This document shows positions 15,042-19,860 of a DNA stretch of 64,000 bases, piece by piece. The translations under genes were made by a program, and so were the position numbers. Within the stretch, counting starts at the first letter, position 1. Each line of letters starts with the position of its first letter. The stretch is from Polyangium sp. 15x6 (GTDB lineage Bacteria > Myxococcota_A > Polyangia > Polyangiales > Polyangiaceae), in NCBI RefSeq assembly GCF_029960785.1, contig NZ_JASBQE010000066.1:1-64000 (forward strand). Direction: 5' to 3'. A model generated the notes under the pieces. It saw only the letters and a list, made by a program, of their open reading frames with translations, ran no database searches and was not told the DNA's origin.

Positions 15042-15866
15042 GTGCCCCGAAAAACCGTTCTTCTCGACCAGGTAGATGCGCAGCTCGTCGACGACGCCGA
15101 GCGTGCGGTACGGGCTGCGAAAGCCCTGCTTCCCGCGCGCCTGACGCGGACCAAGCTCACCCCGGAAGCCAGCGCGGAGCTCGTGCGACAGCTCGTCGCA
15201 CGCGGGCTCGAGCGCGGTCCGAAGTCGATCCGTATTCCCCTCGCGGCGCAGATCGAGAGCCTCCTCCAGGGTGGCGCGCGTGTTCCGCTCAAGGACGTCG
15301 GCAAGCGCGTCAAGGGAGCCACGACGGCTGAAATCAACGCCGCGCTCGGCAAGCTCGCCCGTGAAGGGCGTGCGCGCGTCGTGGTGCGGACGCAGGTGGA
15401 CGTGCTGGTCGGGCCCGACGAACGTGCGCTCGATCCAGCCGAGATCGCGCAGCTTTCGAAGGTGGCGGACCAGCTCGGCAAGACCCTGAAGAAGGCTCGA
15501 GCCAAGGGCCTACCACGCTCGATTTTGCAGGAAGATCTCGCGGCGCTCTTCGCGCCGCTCCAGCCCTCGCATCGTCTCGCCGCAGCCACGCCGAGCGAGG
15601 CCCCTTCGCATCTCGTCGACGAAGCCCTGCGCCGCCTCGAAGATCCGGCGCTCAAGCTCGTGCGCATCCCGGATCTCGTGCGCTCCTTGAGCAGTCGTCT
15701 CCCGCTCGACGCCATCCACCGCGCGCTTGCCGAGGGCGCGAAGGACGGGACGCTCGAGCTGCGGCCGGAAGCCGGCGCGGAGTTCCTGAAGCCCGAGGAC
15801 GTCCCCCTCTGCCCGCCTGGCCCCCGCGGCACCGTCCTCTCCTACGCGAGGCGCGTTTCGCCGTGA
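15042..15866 (+). CDS. Winged-helix DNA-binding protein of a three-gene ATPase/nuclease operon
   Basis: 274 residues from a GTG at 15042; a TTG at 15033 is the alternative, and neither has a strong ribosome-binding site. The N-terminal 60 residues are helical and basic. Residues about 65-125 look like a winged helix (IPLAAQIESLLQGG, then TTAEINAALGKLAREGRARVV). A second helix-turn-helix-like segment lies near the C-terminus (LVRIPDLVRSLSSRLPLDAIHRAL). There is no enzyme motif. Its TGA overlaps the ATG of the next gene (TGATG), so the product is very likely made together with the ATPase and acts as its DNA-binding or specificity partner. That role is inferred from context and fold appearance. 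Confidence 0.8.
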   Translation: MPRKTVLLDQVDAQLVDDAERAVRAAKALLPARLTRTKLTPEASAELVRQLVARGLERGPKSIRIPLAAQIESLLQGGARVPLKDVGKRVKGATTAEINAALGKLAREGRARVVVRTQVDVLVGPDERALDPAEIAQLSKVADQLGKTLKKARAKGLPRSILQEDLAALFAPLQPSHRLAAATPSEAPSHLVDEALRRLEDPALKLVRIPDLVRSLSSRLPLDAIHRALAEGAKDGTLELRPEAGAEFLKPEDVPLCPPGPRGTVLSYARRVSP

Positions 15867-17869
15867 TGGAGAACCCGTTTCAGGCCATCCACGCGGATGC
15901 ATGGGATCCGACGCCCATCGATGTCCCCTCGATCAACGAGCGCGCGAGCTCCCTCGTTCGCGCGCACATCGAACAGCTTCGAGACGCCGGGGCTCGCGAA
16001 GGAACGGCCGCCCGCTCGACGTCGATCCTGCTGCTCGGCCCTGCTGGCATCGGCAAGACGCACCTGTTCACGCGACTGCGCAAGCAGGTGGGTCCACGCG
16101 CCGTCTTCGTGCACACCCGGCCCGAGGTCGGCGTCGATCCGTCGCCCCGACACGTGCTCTCTGCGACGCTGCGTTCGCTCAGGCAGCCGGTGATCCAGCA
16201 GCAACACCGGCAGATCGACGTGATCGTCGGGGCCATGCTCGCGACGCTCGAGGGCGGCCGCCCTCACTTCCCCTTGTCGTTCATCGACGACTGTTCGAGG
16301 CAGCCGCCCGACACGCAGCGCGAGATCATCGAGCGTGCCGTCGCGCGGGCAGAGGATCGTTTTCCAGACACATCCGCGCGATATCTCGAGCACCTCCTGC
16401 GCCTGCCCTTCGCAGACCGTCTGAGCCAGCGTGCGCTCTTCGCGTGGCTCTCGGGCGAGGAGCCGAGCCAGGCGCAGCTCGACATGATCGGCGAGCGCGC
16501 TGCCCTGCGCGAGGACGATCTCATCCTCGCGCTGCGCACCCTCGGCGTGGTGGCGACGTTCGGTGCGCCTATCGTGCTCGTGTTCGATCAGCTCGAGAAC
16601 CTCGCGGAAGAGGAGGGAAAGACGAGCCGGATCATCCGGCACGCGCGCCTCGTGAGCGAGCTCCGCGACACGGTGCGCGGGCTCGTGATCGTGCAGATGG
16701 CGCTCGACGCCGTCTGGATGCAGCGCATCCATCCGGTGCTCCACGCCAGCATGCGGGATCGGCTCGAGGAGAAGATCGAACACCTCGCGCTCCCGACCCC
16801 CGAGGAGCGGCGAGAGCTCATCGAACGCTGGAGGAGCGCGCTGCCCGACAAGAGCAAGCCGTTTCCGCATCCGTTCTCGACGAGACAAGTCGATTCATGG
16901 CTGGTCATGCCGGGAATGACGCCGCGTATGCTGATGCAAAGCTGCGGTGAGGCGTACCAGCGTCGAGCCCTGCCCGAAGCAGAAGAAACCGAGCCCGTCG
17001 ATACCTCCCCGGACGAACGCCTCGAGGTAGCCTGGCAAGAGCTCCTCGGGCGAGCACGGAAGCGAATCGACGAGGCCGCGGCAGAGGCCCAGGGCGTGGC
17101 AGGAGAGAGTGTCCGCGCAGGGCTCCTCGCGGCGCTTTCGGTCGCGCAGGTCAAGGCCGAGACGGGCGAGACGGAAGGGGCTCCTGCGCTGCGCATTCGC
17201 AGGGCCGACGGCGGCTGCGACATGCTCTTCGTGCAGCACGCACACCATACCTCCCTCGCCCGGGTCCTGCGCGCAGCGATCGCGCTCGCCGACGAGCGCA
17301 GGGTCCTGCTCTTGCGCGAGCAAGCGTTCGCGATCCCGCCGACCTGGAAAGAGGTTCACAAGCTCCTCGGCACGTTCACGGGGAAGGCCAATGCTTCGTT
17401 CCTGCCGATCGAACGCGAGGCTCTGGCACGGCTCCTCGCCGTCGAACACCTGCTCGGCGCGGCACGTTCGCAGGATCTGAGCGACGACGTCGGCAGGGGC
17501 ATTCCGTACGACACGGTGATGGACTGGGCCCGGCGCACACTCGGATGCAATGCGTGGAGGCCGGTGGAAGCCCTGCTTTTCGTGGCAACGTTGCCCGTCT
17601 CCGCGCCCCCCGCATCTCCGCCGCCTCCCGCCCATCCCCGAGAGCGCGCAGAGGAAGCATCTGCTCGCGCGACGGCAAAGGCCCCGGCGGACGGTCCGGT
17701 GCTCCGAGAGCTGCGCAAGCTCCGGGTTGCCTCGATCGATCGCCTCGTGCGAGAGGTGCGCGCGTGTGATCCCATGGCCACGCGTGCGACCGTCATGGAG
17801 GAGCTTGCCAAGCTGCCCATCAAGCGCTTCGGCGGCGCGATCGTCGCGCTGGAGGAGCCATGGCGCTGA
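15866..17869 (+). CDS. AAA+/Orc-like ATPase of the three-gene operon
   Basis: 667 residues from the ATG at 15866 (a GTG lies one codon earlier). Walker A is GPAGIGKTH near residue 60 and Walker B is IVLVFDQLENL near residue 237, with Asp-Gln-Leu-Glu as in Orc/KAP/STAND-like P-loop proteins. The C-terminal 60 residues (VLRELRKLRVASIDRLVREVR... ATVMEELAKL) look like a winged helix. A Pro/Ala-rich linker separates this from the ATPase part. It overlaps the upstream gene by 1 nt and the downstream gene by 10 nt. I do not recognise a named family. The architecture recalls ATPases of multi-gene restriction/defence operons such as BREX or DptF-like proteins, without enough identity to assign it. Confidence 0.85.
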   Translation: MENPFQAIHADAWDPTPIDVPSINERASSLVRAHIEQLRDAGAREGTAARSTSILLLGPAGIGKTHLFTRLRKQVGPRAVFVHTRPEVGVDPSPRHVLSATLRSLRQPVIQQQHRQIDVIVGAMLATLEGGRPHFPLSFIDDCSRQPPDTQREIIERAVARAEDRFPDTSARYLEHLLRLPFADRLSQRALFAWLSGEEPSQAQLDMIGERAALREDDLILALRTLGVVATFGAPIVLVFDQLENLAEEEGKTSRIIRHARLVSELRDTVRGLVIVQMALDAVWMQRIHPVLHASMRDRLEEKIEHLALPTPEERRELIERWRSALPDKSKPFPHPFSTRQVDSWLVMPGMTPRMLMQSCGEAYQRRALPEAEETEPVDTSPDERLEVAWQELLGRARKRIDEAAAEAQGVAGESVRAGLLAALSVAQVKAETGETEGAPALRIRRADGGCDMLFVQHAHHTSLARVLRAAIALADERRVLLLREQAFAIPPTWKEVHKLLGTFTGKANASFLPIEREALARLLAVEHLLGAARSQDLSDDVGRGIPYDTVMDWARRTLGCNAWRPVEALLFVATLPVSAPPASPPPPAHPRERAEEASARATAKAPADGPVLRELRKLRVASIDRLVREVRACDPMATRATVMEELAKLPIKRFGGAIVALEEPWR

Positions 17870-19860
17870 GCCCCCAGTCGTTCCCCCGACGCGGCGCCCG
17901 CGAGCTCTCCGTCACCGAGATCCGCAACGCTCTTCGCTGCCCGCGTGTCTTCGCGCTCGGGCGCGCACGTGGCCAGGCCGTCGCTTTCCCGATCGGCGCC
18001 TCGTCCCTGGGCGCGCTCTTCCATCGCATCGCGGAGCGTTTCTCGCGTGAGCTCGAGCGTCCTCCCGAGCCCGTGCGCGCGCTCCCTCCGCATGCGCCGC
18101 GCGAACGTGTAGCAGATGCCCTCTCGGCCTGGCTCCTCGACCACCTCGTGGACGAGCTCGAAGCGAACCCCAGCGCGGCGAGCATGCCCGGCGAGATCGA
18201 CGACCTGGCCGAGGCGCTGCGGGAGCTCGCGCGCTACCTGGCGAAACAAATCGAGGGCACGGGACGCGGGCCGGCGGAGGCTTTGCGTGCGTTCATTCAG
18301 CACGCCGAGCTCGCGGTCGACGCCGTGCTCGACGCGTCCGGGGAAGTACCGGTACGTGTCTCGGGCCGGATCGACGCCGTGTATGGCCGGGCGCGAGGCG
18401 CCGTCGATGTCGTCGAATACAAGCTCACGGACGAGGCCAACCAGGAGCTCGACCAGGCGCAGGTGGCGCTCTACCGTTACCTCTTGCGCTGCGCGCTCGA
18501 TGTCGACGCCGACCCGCTCATCCTGCGCTTCAAACCAGGGCTCATCGAGACGAAGCTCTCGCCGGTGGCTGCGGATGGCATCGTGGAGCGGACCCTCTTG
18601 CCCCTCCTCGGCAATATGGTGAGCTGGTCGGAGCGCCCCGAAAACGCGCCTGCGACCTCGCGCCGGGACCTCTGCCCGACGTGCCCTGTACGATCGGCGT
18701 GTGTCGAGACGTACCGAGACGCGCTCGAACCTCGCGATCAGCCACCTGCGGGCGCAGCTCGCCCCATGCCGGATCCGGCCGGACGACTCACCTTGCCCCC
18801 TCCGCGCGAGCCCATGGGCGCTCCGCCGGACGACTCCGAGGGCATGGCGGAGGCCGAGGCCCTCGCCACGCAAATCGTGGCGCAGCTGAAACGACAGGGG
18901 GTCATCGCGAGCCTTGGCCGAAAGACCGTTGGACCGCGGCTCCTGCGCATCGAGGTCACGAGCCCGCGGCAGCGTGTGGCGCAGCTCGATCGCGCAGCCC
19001 AGGACGTGGAGCATCACCTCGCCGGGTACAACGTGCGGTTCGAGCGGGAGGAGGCGCGGCGATACTTCACGGCCCCGCGGAAGGTGCCGCGCAAGGTCGA
19101 CCTCGAAACCCTGCTCGCGCGCAAAGCCGCATTCTTGCGGGAGCGGCCGGGGCGCTTCGTGCTCGGGGAGGGGCTCGATGGCGAGGTGATCGCCGGGGAC
19201 CTCGCCGACGGAAGCTCGTGCCACTTGCTCGTGGCCGGTCAGACGGGGAGCGGCAAATCGGTTTTCTTGCGTGCCCTCGTCGTCGGGCTTTGTCACTTTC
19301 ATCCGCCGGCAGCCATACGGTTCACGCTGGTGGATCCCAAGCGCGTGACGTTCGGCGGGCTCGCTGCGGGGATCGGCGCGCACCTGGCAGGGCCGATCGT
19401 GCACGATGTGGAGGCGCTTCTCGCGGAGCTCGACGCGCTCGTTTCCGAGATGGAGGAGCGATACACGCTCTTCGAGTACCGGAAGGTGCAGAGCATCGAC
19501 GACTACAATGAGACCGCGCCTGCACCGCTGCCACGGCGGGTGGTCGTGGTGGACGAATTTCAGGACTTGATTGCGTCGAGGGCGACCCGGCAGCCATTCC
19601 TGGATGCGGTGAAGCGCCTCGGGTCGATGGCTCGCGCGGCCGGGATTCACCTCGTGCTGGCCACGCAGCGGCCCGACCGCACGACGGTGCCTGGAGAGAT
19701 CAAAGCGAACCTGGGCGGGAGGGTCGCGCTGCGGGTGCAGGAGGTCGTCAATTCGAGGATCATCCTGGACCAGGGAGGGGCGGAGGAGCTTCTGGGGAAG
19801 GGAGACTTTTACGCCGATCTCGGGCACGGGCTCGTGCGGGGACAAGCGCCGATGGCGTGA
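17860..19860 (+). CDS. PD-(D/E)XK Fe-S nuclease fused to FtsK/HerA-type DNA translocase
   Basis: 666 residues. Residues 1-290 are a RecB/Cas4-type nuclease: H55 in GALFHRIAE, D172 in GRIDAVY, E186-Y-K188 in VVEYKLTD, and the QxxxY-like LDQAQVALYRYLL. Four Cys residues fit a 4Fe-4S cluster as in Cas4/AddB/Dna2: C27, then C272-x2-C275-x5-C281. Residues about 330-420 form a linker domain resembling the alpha domain of FtsK. Residues 440-666 are the motor: Walker A GQTGSGKS at 460-467, VDPKR, Walker B VVVVDEF at 561-567, and ATQRPD. There are no membrane segments and no FtsK gamma domain. GGAGGAG inside the end of the ATPase gene gives an excellent ribosome-binding site. All catalytic residues look intact, so an active DNA-translocating nuclease is predicted. 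Confidence 0.9.
   Translation: MALSPQSFPRRGARELSVTEIRNALRCPRVFALGRARGQAVAFPIGASSLGALFHRIAERFSRELERPPEPVRALPPHAPRERVADALSAWLLDHLVDELEANPSAASMPGEIDDLAEALRELARYLAKQIEGTGRGPAEALRAFIQHAELAVDAVLDASGEVPVRVSGRIDAVYGRARGAVDVVEYKLTDEANQELDQAQVALYRYLLRCALDVDADPLILRFKPGLIETKLSPVAADGIVERTLLPLLGNMVSWSERPENAPATSRRDLCPTCPVRSACVETYRDALEPRDQPPAGAARPMPDPAGRLTLPPPREPMGAPPDDSEGMAEAEALATQIVAQLKRQGVIASLGRKTVGPRLLRIEVTSPRQRVAQLDRAAQDVEHHLAGYNVRFEREEARRYFTAPRKVPRKVDLETLLARKAAFLRERPGRFVLGEGLDGEVIAGDLADGSSCHLLVAGQTGSGKSVFLRALVVGLCHFHPPAAIRFTLVDPKRVTFGGLAAGIGAHLAGPIVHDVEALLAELDALVSEMEERYTLFEYRKVQSIDDYNETAPAPLPRRVVVVDEFQDLIASRATRQPFLDAVKRLGSMARAAGIHLVLATQRPDRTTVPGEIKANLGGRVALRVQEVVNSRIILDQGGAEELLGKGDFYADLGHGLVRGQAPMA

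What the first reader, a model, noticed from the sequence alone, without database searches (positions are those of the whole stretch)
15042..19860. Overlapping three-gene operon: winged-helix protein, Orc-like ATPase, and Fe-S nuclease fused to an FtsK/HerA motor
Seen: three genes overlapping by 1 and 10 nt, with an ideal ribosome-binding site for the third inside the second. The third protein joins a complete Cas4/AddB-like nuclease (H55, D172, E186/K188, four Cys) to a complete FtsK/HerA motor. The first two proteins carry winged-helix-like segments, and the second also has an intact P-loop ATPase. Known: HerA/FtsK motors with nucleases, or with AAA ATPases, are the cores of several anti-phage systems (DptFGH, SIR2-HerA, BREX-type operons) and of end-resection machines (NurA-HerA). 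Inference: this is a self-contained DNA-sensing and DNA-degrading or processing system that I cannot match to a named one. It could be a new defence module or a repair/recombination complex.
Basis: partly seen in the sequence, partly recalled or inferred. Interest (0 to 1): 0.85.

Follow-up and report, generated by a model that had tools for sequence, protein, structure and literature searches.

The report
Three-gene DNA-capturing nuclease-motor operon
Three overlapping bacterial genes encode a DNA-binding protein, an origin-recognition-like ATPase and a DNA pump fused to a DNA-cutting enzyme; together they probably seize and shred invading DNA, and they look like an untested variant of a class of defence systems predicted by computer in 2024.

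Summary
In detail: g1 (15042-15866), g2 (15866-17869) and g3 (17860-19860) overlap by 1 and 10 nt. g1 is modelled as three winged-helix units. g2 is an Orc/Cdc6-type AAA+ ATPase with a nuclease-like but catalytically bare domain and a terminal winged helix in the model. g3 joins an Fe-S-type PD-(D/E)XK nuclease to an FtsK motor; active sites are invariant in 15 aligned sequences. In the order, g1 precedes 21 of 21 examined close g2 homologues and g3 follows 17; the four without g3 form one clade whose g2 also lacks most of the terminal winged helix. A cyanobacterial conjugative plasmid has the same layout. Close g2 occurs in 22 of 183 genomes and one copy carries an internal deletion, so it is not housekeeping. 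It resembles the 'Orc/CDC6-coupled HerA/FtsK capture' systems predicted in 2024 (PMC10853773): three defining features met, four inconclusive, one not testable. The Fe-S-type nuclease fused to the motor is not mentioned in that paper's main text where I searched. Best reading: ATP-driven capture and degradation of invading DNA. Defence is inferred: the neighbourhood test was uninformative, and gene order in the genus is too scrambled to show mobility. Relatives swap the motor (HerA for FtsK) or sit beside a caspase gene.

The parts
15042..15866 (+). g1: small, fast-evolving protein of three winged-helix-like units (about residues 13-66, 65-127, 187-272); predicted DNA-recognition subunit
   Evidence: middle unit Z 10.4, rmsd 1.6, 60 aligned to 3pqk_B; last unit Z 8.5, rmsd 1.7, 63 aligned to 8s0e_7; first unit from secondary structure only
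15866..17869 (+). g2: Orc/Cdc6-type AAA+ ATPase (residues 1-370), nuclease-like alpha/beta domain without catalytic residues (about 413-534), C-terminal winged helix (about 608-667)
15866..16975 (+). AAA+ module of g2 (Walker A GPAGIGKTH 58-66, Walker B FDQLE 240-244, sensor-2-like TPR 352-354)
   Evidence: motif names recalled
17102..17467 (+). inactive-nuclease-like domain of g2 (residues 413-534)
   Evidence: helix-strand-strand-helix-strand-helix-strand order; no conserved acidic/lysine catalytic set; no confirming fold match
17687..17866 (+). C-terminal winged helix of g2 (residues 608-667); its second half is missing from the four homologues that lack g3
17860..19860 (+). g3: PD-(D/E)XK nuclease with four Cys (Fe-S type) fused to an FtsK-type DNA translocase; no membrane segment, nothing after the motor
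17902..18702 (+). PD-(D/E)XK nuclease domain with C27, C272, C275, C281 (residues 15-281)
18838..19857 (+). FtsK-alpha-like region and FtsK/SpoIIIE motor of g3 (residues 327-666)
17851..17859 (+). ribosome-binding site for g3 inside g2 (ggaggagcc before ATG)
   Evidence: sequence

Best explanation
The three genes make one ATP-driven machine that recognises, captures and degrades invading DNA. Step 1 (inferred): the multi-winged-helix g1 and the terminal winged helix of g2 bind DNA or a DNA structure. Step 2 (inferred from fold): g2 assembles as an Orc/Cdc6/TnsC-like ATP-dependent ring or filament on DNA and acts as the licensing switch; its bare nuclease-like domain is a binding or sensing module, not a cutter. 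Step 3 (inferred): g2, through its terminal winged helix, recruits g3. Step 4 (catalytic residues shown, activity inferred): g3 forms an FtsK-like pump that reels in double-stranded DNA and feeds it to its N-terminal Fe-S-type PD-(D/E)XK nuclease. The likely use is defence against plasmids, conjugative elements or phages.
For: Domains and catalytic residues. Folds: the top rows for g2 are TnsC, Cdc6 and Orc proteins (Z 13.6-15.5, in a second look at Foldseek's own matches); g1 winged helices. Unit: g1 directly before g2 in 21 of 21 examined close loci and g3 directly after in 17 of 21; overlap of 1-4 nt in 18 of 20 g1-g2 pairs and of 4-46 nt in 15 of 15 g2-g3 pairs (starts chosen by script). 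Link between g2's terminal winged helix and g3: g3 and the second half of the winged helix are both missing in the 4 members of one clade; their genomes give no other hit that includes the nuclease. Accessory: close g2 in 22 of 183 genomes of the order; one congener has an internal deletion through g2 and g3. Mobile in one case: same layout on the conjugative plasmid of Pseudanabaena sp. PCC 7367. Defence-type relatives: nuclease kept with a HerA-type motor in L085; Orc-HerA fusion beside a caspase/death-like-domain gene in L080; Orc-like ATPase beside TIR and macro-domain genes on a Synechococcus plasmid. The same class was predicted to act against invaders (PMC10853773).
Against: No experiment. 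Known defence genes were not demonstrably enriched around it (76 neighbours against 76 controls; the families shown for both are mostly protein-kinase-type models); the window's own neighbours were not scanned. In the g3 tree the second family's copies stay outside the first family's, which fits inheritance and loss; in the g2 tree they fall among them, but without strong support (94/95 and 63/73). Sharp cassette edges within the genus mean little, because other genes there also move singly. p97-type AAA proteins reach Z 13.0-13.6 against g2, so the Orc assignment stands out only modestly. The nuclease-like reading of g2's middle domain has no fold-search support. The co-loss of g3 and the winged helix is a single event, and two of those four genomes are only 77% and 91% complete.
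Confidence: 0.62

Rival explanations
1. A DNA repair or end-resection complex (a functional analogue of NurA-HerA or AddAB): g3 resects broken ends, g1 and g2 load it at the break.
For: A motor plus a four-Cys PD-(D/E)XK nuclease is the AddB/Cas4/NurA-HerA style of machine (analogy recalled).
Against: No close g2 in 161 of 183 genomes of the order (72 of the 183 are below the 90%/5% quality line, so some absences may be gaps), broken in one congener, on a plasmid in another phylum, fast-evolving recognition subunit (26-38% identity to g1 in 16 of 20 homologues).
Confidence: 0.17
2. A function of mobile elements themselves: plasmid or integrated-element segregation, transfer or inter-element competition, with the chromosomal copies being remnants.
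For: Layout on a conjugative plasmid; FtsK-type motor; patchy distribution.
Against: Neighbours of the chromosomal copies were not scanned for integrases or relaxases.
Confidence: 0.13
3. A chromosome maintenance factor derived from FtsK, for example clearing of replication or segregation intermediates.
For: The motor's best match among solved structures is FtsK (E 1.2e-61), and 7 of 15 members show a weak FtsK-alpha match.
Against: No membrane segment in g3 (highest 19-residue hydropathy 1.45) and nothing after the motor; an FtsK-like protein is encoded separately in the same genome; dispensable.
Confidence: 0.08

Closest known systems
Orc/CDC6-coupled HerA/FtsK capture systems (predicted; Rakesh, Aravind, Krishnan, PMC10853773)
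   Same: Orc/CDC6 AAA+ with an extra nuclease-like domain before a terminal winged helix (models), FtsK-type motor with a weak alpha region, active nuclease, separate multi-winged-helix gene
   Different: Here the active nuclease is a four-Cys, Fe-S-type PD-(D/E)XK enzyme fused to the motor in a fixed three-gene overlapping operon; a term search of the paper's main text finds no Cas4 or RecB, and its iron-sulfur passages concern DndC and DndA. Its figure 7 and supplement were not seen.
DndFGH / SspFGH (DptFGH)
   Same: Three genes; g3's motor resembles the C-terminal motor of SspH (E 5e-59); the multi-winged-helix partner recalls DndG
   Different: DndH averages 1700 residues with eight domains (PMC10853773); g3 has 666 and a different nuclease; no DndF, DndG, SspF or SspG match for g1-g3 or the 19 g2 sequences. 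Phosphorothioation genes were not searched for.
NurA-HerA
   Same: DNA pump plus nuclease (recalled)
   Different: No NurA match; nuclease fused, FtsK-type rather than HerA-type motor
AddB / Cas4 nucleases
   Same: PD-(D/E)XK with one N-terminal and three C-terminal Cys (pattern recalled for AddB and Cas4)
   Different: AddB is a helicase-nuclease subunit and Cas4 a CRISPR adaptation enzyme (recalled); here the partner is an FtsK motor
BREX-related capture (BRC) systems, PMC12839542
   Same: ORC/Cdc6 ATPase with HerA/FtsK motor
   Different: BRC has seven components including PglZ (passages); the operon has three genes and no PglZ among them. Neighbours were not scanned for PglZ.

Membership tests
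Orc/CDC6-coupled HerA/FtsK capture system | Orc/CDC6-type AAA+ ATPase | tested here: met
   AAA_16; top structural rows are TnsC, Cdc6, Orc (Z 13.6-15.5), p97 and DnaA follow at 12.9-13.6
Orc/CDC6-coupled HerA/FtsK capture system | inactive nuclease domain between AAA+ and terminal winged helix | tested here: inconclusive
   Right position and secondary structure, no conserved catalytic residues in 23 sequences, one of 19 fragments hits pPIWI_RE_REase at 0.0068; no fold match confirms it
Orc/CDC6-coupled HerA/FtsK capture system | C-terminal winged helix on the ATPase | tested here: inconclusive
   helix-strand-helix-helix-strand-strand at 611-662 in the model; profile reaches the arginine repressor at E 0.066 only; no separate fold search
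Orc/CDC6-coupled HerA/FtsK capture system | HerA/FtsK motor | tested here: met
   15 of 15 members match FtsK_SpoIIIE; Q603 invariant
Orc/CDC6-coupled HerA/FtsK capture system | FtsK-alpha domain on the motor (one subset) | tested here: inconclusive
   7 of 15 members match FtsK_alpha at E 0.05 or better, best 0.0022; g3 itself 0.018, below the curated cut-off
Orc/CDC6-coupled HerA/FtsK capture system | active nuclease in the operon | tested here: met
   catalytic residues invariant in 15 of 15 aligned sequences; activity itself not testable
Orc/CDC6-coupled HerA/FtsK capture system | nuclease belongs to one of the two families named in the paper | not testable with these tools
   the second family is not named in the text read; figure 7 and supplement not held
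Orc/CDC6-coupled HerA/FtsK capture system | extra gene with 2-4 winged helices related to DndG/SspB/FokI (a subset) | tested here: inconclusive
   three winged-helix-like units; kinship to DndG/SspB/FokI not shown
DndFGH / SspFGH | large multidomain DndH with companion DndF and DndG | tested here: not met
   g3 is 666 aa and matches only the motor part of SspH; no DndF/DndG/SspF/SspG match
NurA-HerA | NurA nuclease and HerA motor | tested here: not met
   nuclease is PDDEXK_1, motor is FtsK_SpoIIIE; only weak HerA matches
Cellular FtsK/SpoIIIE | membrane segments and C-terminal gamma domain (recalled) | tested here: not met
   no hydrophobic segment; protein ends after the motor

The most novel reading that the evidence does not exclude
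A stand-alone 'capture and shred' immune machine in which an origin-recognition-type ATPase with a multi-winged-helix partner licenses a DNA pump carrying its own Fe-S nuclease, and in which the same ATPase chassis is re-used with other motors (HerA) and other outputs (caspase with a death-like domain, STAND-WD40), so that one DNA-sensing core serves both DNA degradation and cell suicide.
Probability: 0.3. Interest if true: 0.75.

Novelty: new variant of a known kind. Interest (0 to 1): 0.55.

Why it matters
As far as my searches of the open-licence PubMed Central library show (listings, two papers looked into), the class exists only as a prediction. This operon is a compact example: three genes, about 4.8 kb, all active sites intact, natural variants that lack the third gene and a natural deletion. 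That makes the proposed capture mechanism directly testable in a laboratory host, and the variants tell which contact to examine first (terminal winged helix of g2 with g3).

Tried and rejected
Tried without gain: sequence search of g2 in solved structures (no match); profile searches of g2, g1 and g2's tail (nothing convincing); viral contigs with the g2 profile (no relative among 600 capped candidates); phage and plasmid records. Defence-model scan around 15 relatives against controls from some of the same genomes: 76 neighbour proteins of 100 aa or more within 6 kb (all that the script listed), and 76 of 132 control proteins (eight of the 15 control regions, less two proteins of those). In both, the families shown are mostly protein-kinase-type models (top model 9 of 76 and 4 of 76 members); only the first 25 of 141 and of 39 families are shown, so the test is inconclusive. 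The larger number of families on the neighbour side (141 against 39) may reflect the extra kinases or something unseen. Empty-site search with the window's flanks in five congeners: flank pieces lie scattered, no clean empty site. I first read the sharp cassette edges shared by four congeners as mobility; the control with other parts of the window shows that genes of this genus move singly anyway, so I dropped that inference. Trees: the g3 tree gives no sign of transfer between the two families, the g2 tree only a weakly supported one. The DndG/SspB/FokI family did not appear in the g1 fold list, and no nuclease fold appears among the 50 rows for g2; neither absence excludes kinship. Duplicated records (L004 with L062, L005 with L065) and the fragment L006 were left out of the locus counts; L006 stayed in the g3 alignment and tree. 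L077 was left out of the overlap counts because its g2 is frame-broken, and L064 out of the g2-g3 count because of its deletion.
Full report
What is there. Three genes on the + strand, g1 15042-15866, g2 15866-17869, g3 17860-19860, overlap by 1 and 10 nt. A strong ribosome-binding site for g3 lies in the end of g2. The genome (13.4 Mb, 275 contigs, 98% complete by the table) has one copy and, separately, an FtsK-like protein on another contig. The nearest named relatives are two Polyangium genomes (g3 95% and 92% identical).

g3. Pfam gives PDDEXK_1 (E 4.4e-22, residues 15-281) and FtsK_SpoIIIE (E 3.3e-34). In g3 and 14 homologues (50-95% identity) the nuclease residues H55, D172, E186, K188 and Q201, four cysteines (27, 272, 275, 281) and the motor's Walker motifs are invariant. 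All these nuclease residues and cysteines are also aligned in the cyanobacterial homologue. Among solved structures the profile is closest to FtsK (2iuu, E 1.2e-61). There is no membrane segment and nothing after the motor. Three divergent homologues (L078, L081, L084) keep the H, D, E and K but lack the cysteines. That the cysteines hold an Fe-S cluster is inferred from the AddB/Cas4 pattern (recalled).

g2. The model (mean pLDDT 85) has an AAA+ module whose best structural neighbours are TnsC, Cdc6 and Orc proteins (Z 15.5, rmsd 3.6 and 3.4 over 241 and 239 residues for the first two rows; p97-type proteins reach Z 13.0-13.6, which re-ranks Foldseek's own matches). After it comes an alpha/beta domain (about 413-534) whose element order resembles a PD-(D/E)XK core; no catalytic acidic/lysine set is conserved across 23 sequences. 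Fold searches do not confirm that domain. A winged helix closes the model (608-667; secondary structure only).

g1. Three winged-helix-like units in the model (mean pLDDT 87 but pTM 0.56, so their mutual arrangement is unsure). The middle unit aligns with ArsR/MarR-type domains (best Z 10.4, rmsd 1.6, 60 residues), the last with a winged helix of the human OCCM complex (chain 7 of 8s0e, Z 8.5, rmsd 1.7, 63 residues). The first unit is read from secondary structure.

Unit and distribution. In the order, 33 of 183 genomes have a g2 match at E 1e-5; 22 are close (E 1e-38 or better) and 11 distant. 111 of the 183 pass the 90%/5% quality line and 19 of these have a match. I examined 21 of the 22 close loci, the window included (G313, split over contigs, was not fetched). 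g1 lies directly upstream in 21 of 21; g3 directly downstream in 17 of 21. Of these 17, one g3 is cut by a contig end (G061), one g2 is frame-broken (G241; error or decay) and one locus has an internal deletion (G309). g1-g2 overlap by 1-4 nt in 18 of 20 measurable pairs (gaps of 5 and 27 nt in two) and g2-g3 by 4-46 nt in 15 of 15, with starts chosen by script. In a phylum sample, 17 of 188 genomes match g3 at E 1e-30, but only 5 of them include the nuclease; 12 match the motor only. A class sample with the g2 profile gave 6 of 144, of which four were already known and two are distant partial matches. Within the genus, 3 of 5 other genomes have the close operon (one with the deletion), one has the divergent version and one has no g2 match and only an FtsK-like match for g3.

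A natural dissection. Four genomes (G244, G271, G301, G303) keep g1-g2 without g3 next to it; they form one clade in the g2 tree (support 100/99), keep the ATPase motifs, and their g2 proteins end before the second half of the terminal winged helix. A search of these genomes with g3 finds no hit reaching upstream of residue 263, that is, FtsK-like motors in three and nothing in G244 (G301 is 77% and G244 91% complete). This co-loss is one evolutionary event, but it suggests that the terminal winged helix serves the coupling to g3.

Beyond the phylum. The plasmid pPSE7367.01 of Pseudanabaena sp. PCC 7367, typed as conjugative, carries the same layout: 266 aa, 680 aa and 688 aa, the last two overlapping by 1 nt, the first two 50 nt apart. 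g3 is 30% identical over its length; g2 matches the family profile over 527 columns (E 1e-13); the first gene matches g1 only very weakly (probability 2%), so its identity rests on position.

Relatives that swap parts. Among nine distant loci fetched (8 of the 11 genomes), four have a separate g3-like gene after g2 (L078, L081, L084, L085). L085 keeps the same kind of nuclease (29% identity; cysteines, H, D, K and Q aligned, D in place of E186) but has a HerA-type motor. In the other five the g2 homologue is 1044 residues or longer; for L080 I showed that it is fused to a HerA-type motor, for the rest this is inferred from length. L080's next gene is a caspase with a bacterial death-like domain (Peptidase_C14 E 4.7e-19, bDLD3 E 2.7e-28); L086's is a WD40 protein and L082's an AAA_16/NACHT-type protein. 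A Synechococcus plasmid has a remote Orc-like ATPase (24% identity over residues 50-320) next to TIR and macro-domain genes.

What it is. PMC10853773 (outline, passages and two parts of the text read) describes mobile neighbourhoods that couple Orc/CDC6 ATPases, with an inactive nuclease domain before a terminal winged helix, to HerA/FtsK motors, active nucleases and, in a subset, proteins of 2-4 winged helices; it proposes that they intercept invader DNA during segregation, transfer or packaging. PMC12839542 (outline and passages) repeats the idea and adds BRC systems. Of the class's features listed in the membership test, three are met (ATPase type, motor, active nuclease residues), four inconclusive (inactive nuclease domain, terminal winged helix, FtsK-alpha, kinship of g1), one not testable (which nuclease family); none was tested and failed. 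A term search of the first paper's main text finds no Cas4 or RecB, and its iron-sulfur passages concern DndC and DndA; figure 7 and the supplement were not available, so I cannot say whether this exact architecture is in their data. PADLOC 2.0.0 gives g3 motor-type matches (SspH, mad8, HerA) and weaker nuclease-type ones (Cas4, DruK), and g2 only weak matches such as Avs2 and mad8.

Mechanism. Shown: domain content, intact active sites, conserved order, co-loss of g3 with part of g2's terminal winged helix, dispensability. Inferred: a DNA-bound g1-g2 assembly recruits g3, whose pump feeds DNA to the fused nuclease; the target is invading DNA. I put 0.62 on this as a whole; that the three proteins act together on DNA I would put near 0.9.

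Results against. No defence-gene enrichment could be shown. The g3 tree does not need transfer between families; the g2 tree hints at it only weakly. Cassette edges in the genus are uninformative because synteny is scrambled.

Noticed in passing
L080:8007-18333 (similar layout in L079): Orc-like ATPase fused to a HerA-type motor (1044 aa in L080), followed by a caspase with a bacterial death-like domain and a 1271-aa protein; its L079 counterpart (1280 aa) matches RNA polymerase alpha-CTD and sigma-70 region 4. A possible suicide branch of the same ATPase family.
   Followed up: partly
L085:4349-11201: Three-gene layout in which the four-Cys nuclease is joined to a HerA-type instead of an FtsK-type motor, followed by a gene with a weak DO-GTPase2 match.
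   Followed up: partly
L073, L074, L075, L076: g1-g2 pair without g3 in one clade, g2 lacking most of the terminal winged helix but keeping ATPase motifs.
   Followed up: yes
L064:7183-10816: Copy in a congener with an internal deletion (window equivalent 17122-18315) that removes the end of g2 and the start of g3.
   Followed up: yes
L168:8389-12355: Synechococcus elongatus plasmid: Orc-like ATPase with an N-terminal exonuclease-type (RNase_T) match, followed by TIR and macro-domain genes.
   Followed up: partly
window:3185-8845: 1886-residue gene, kinase-like by its first residues (not scanned), with several full-length or partial relatives in each of three congeners.
   Followed up: no
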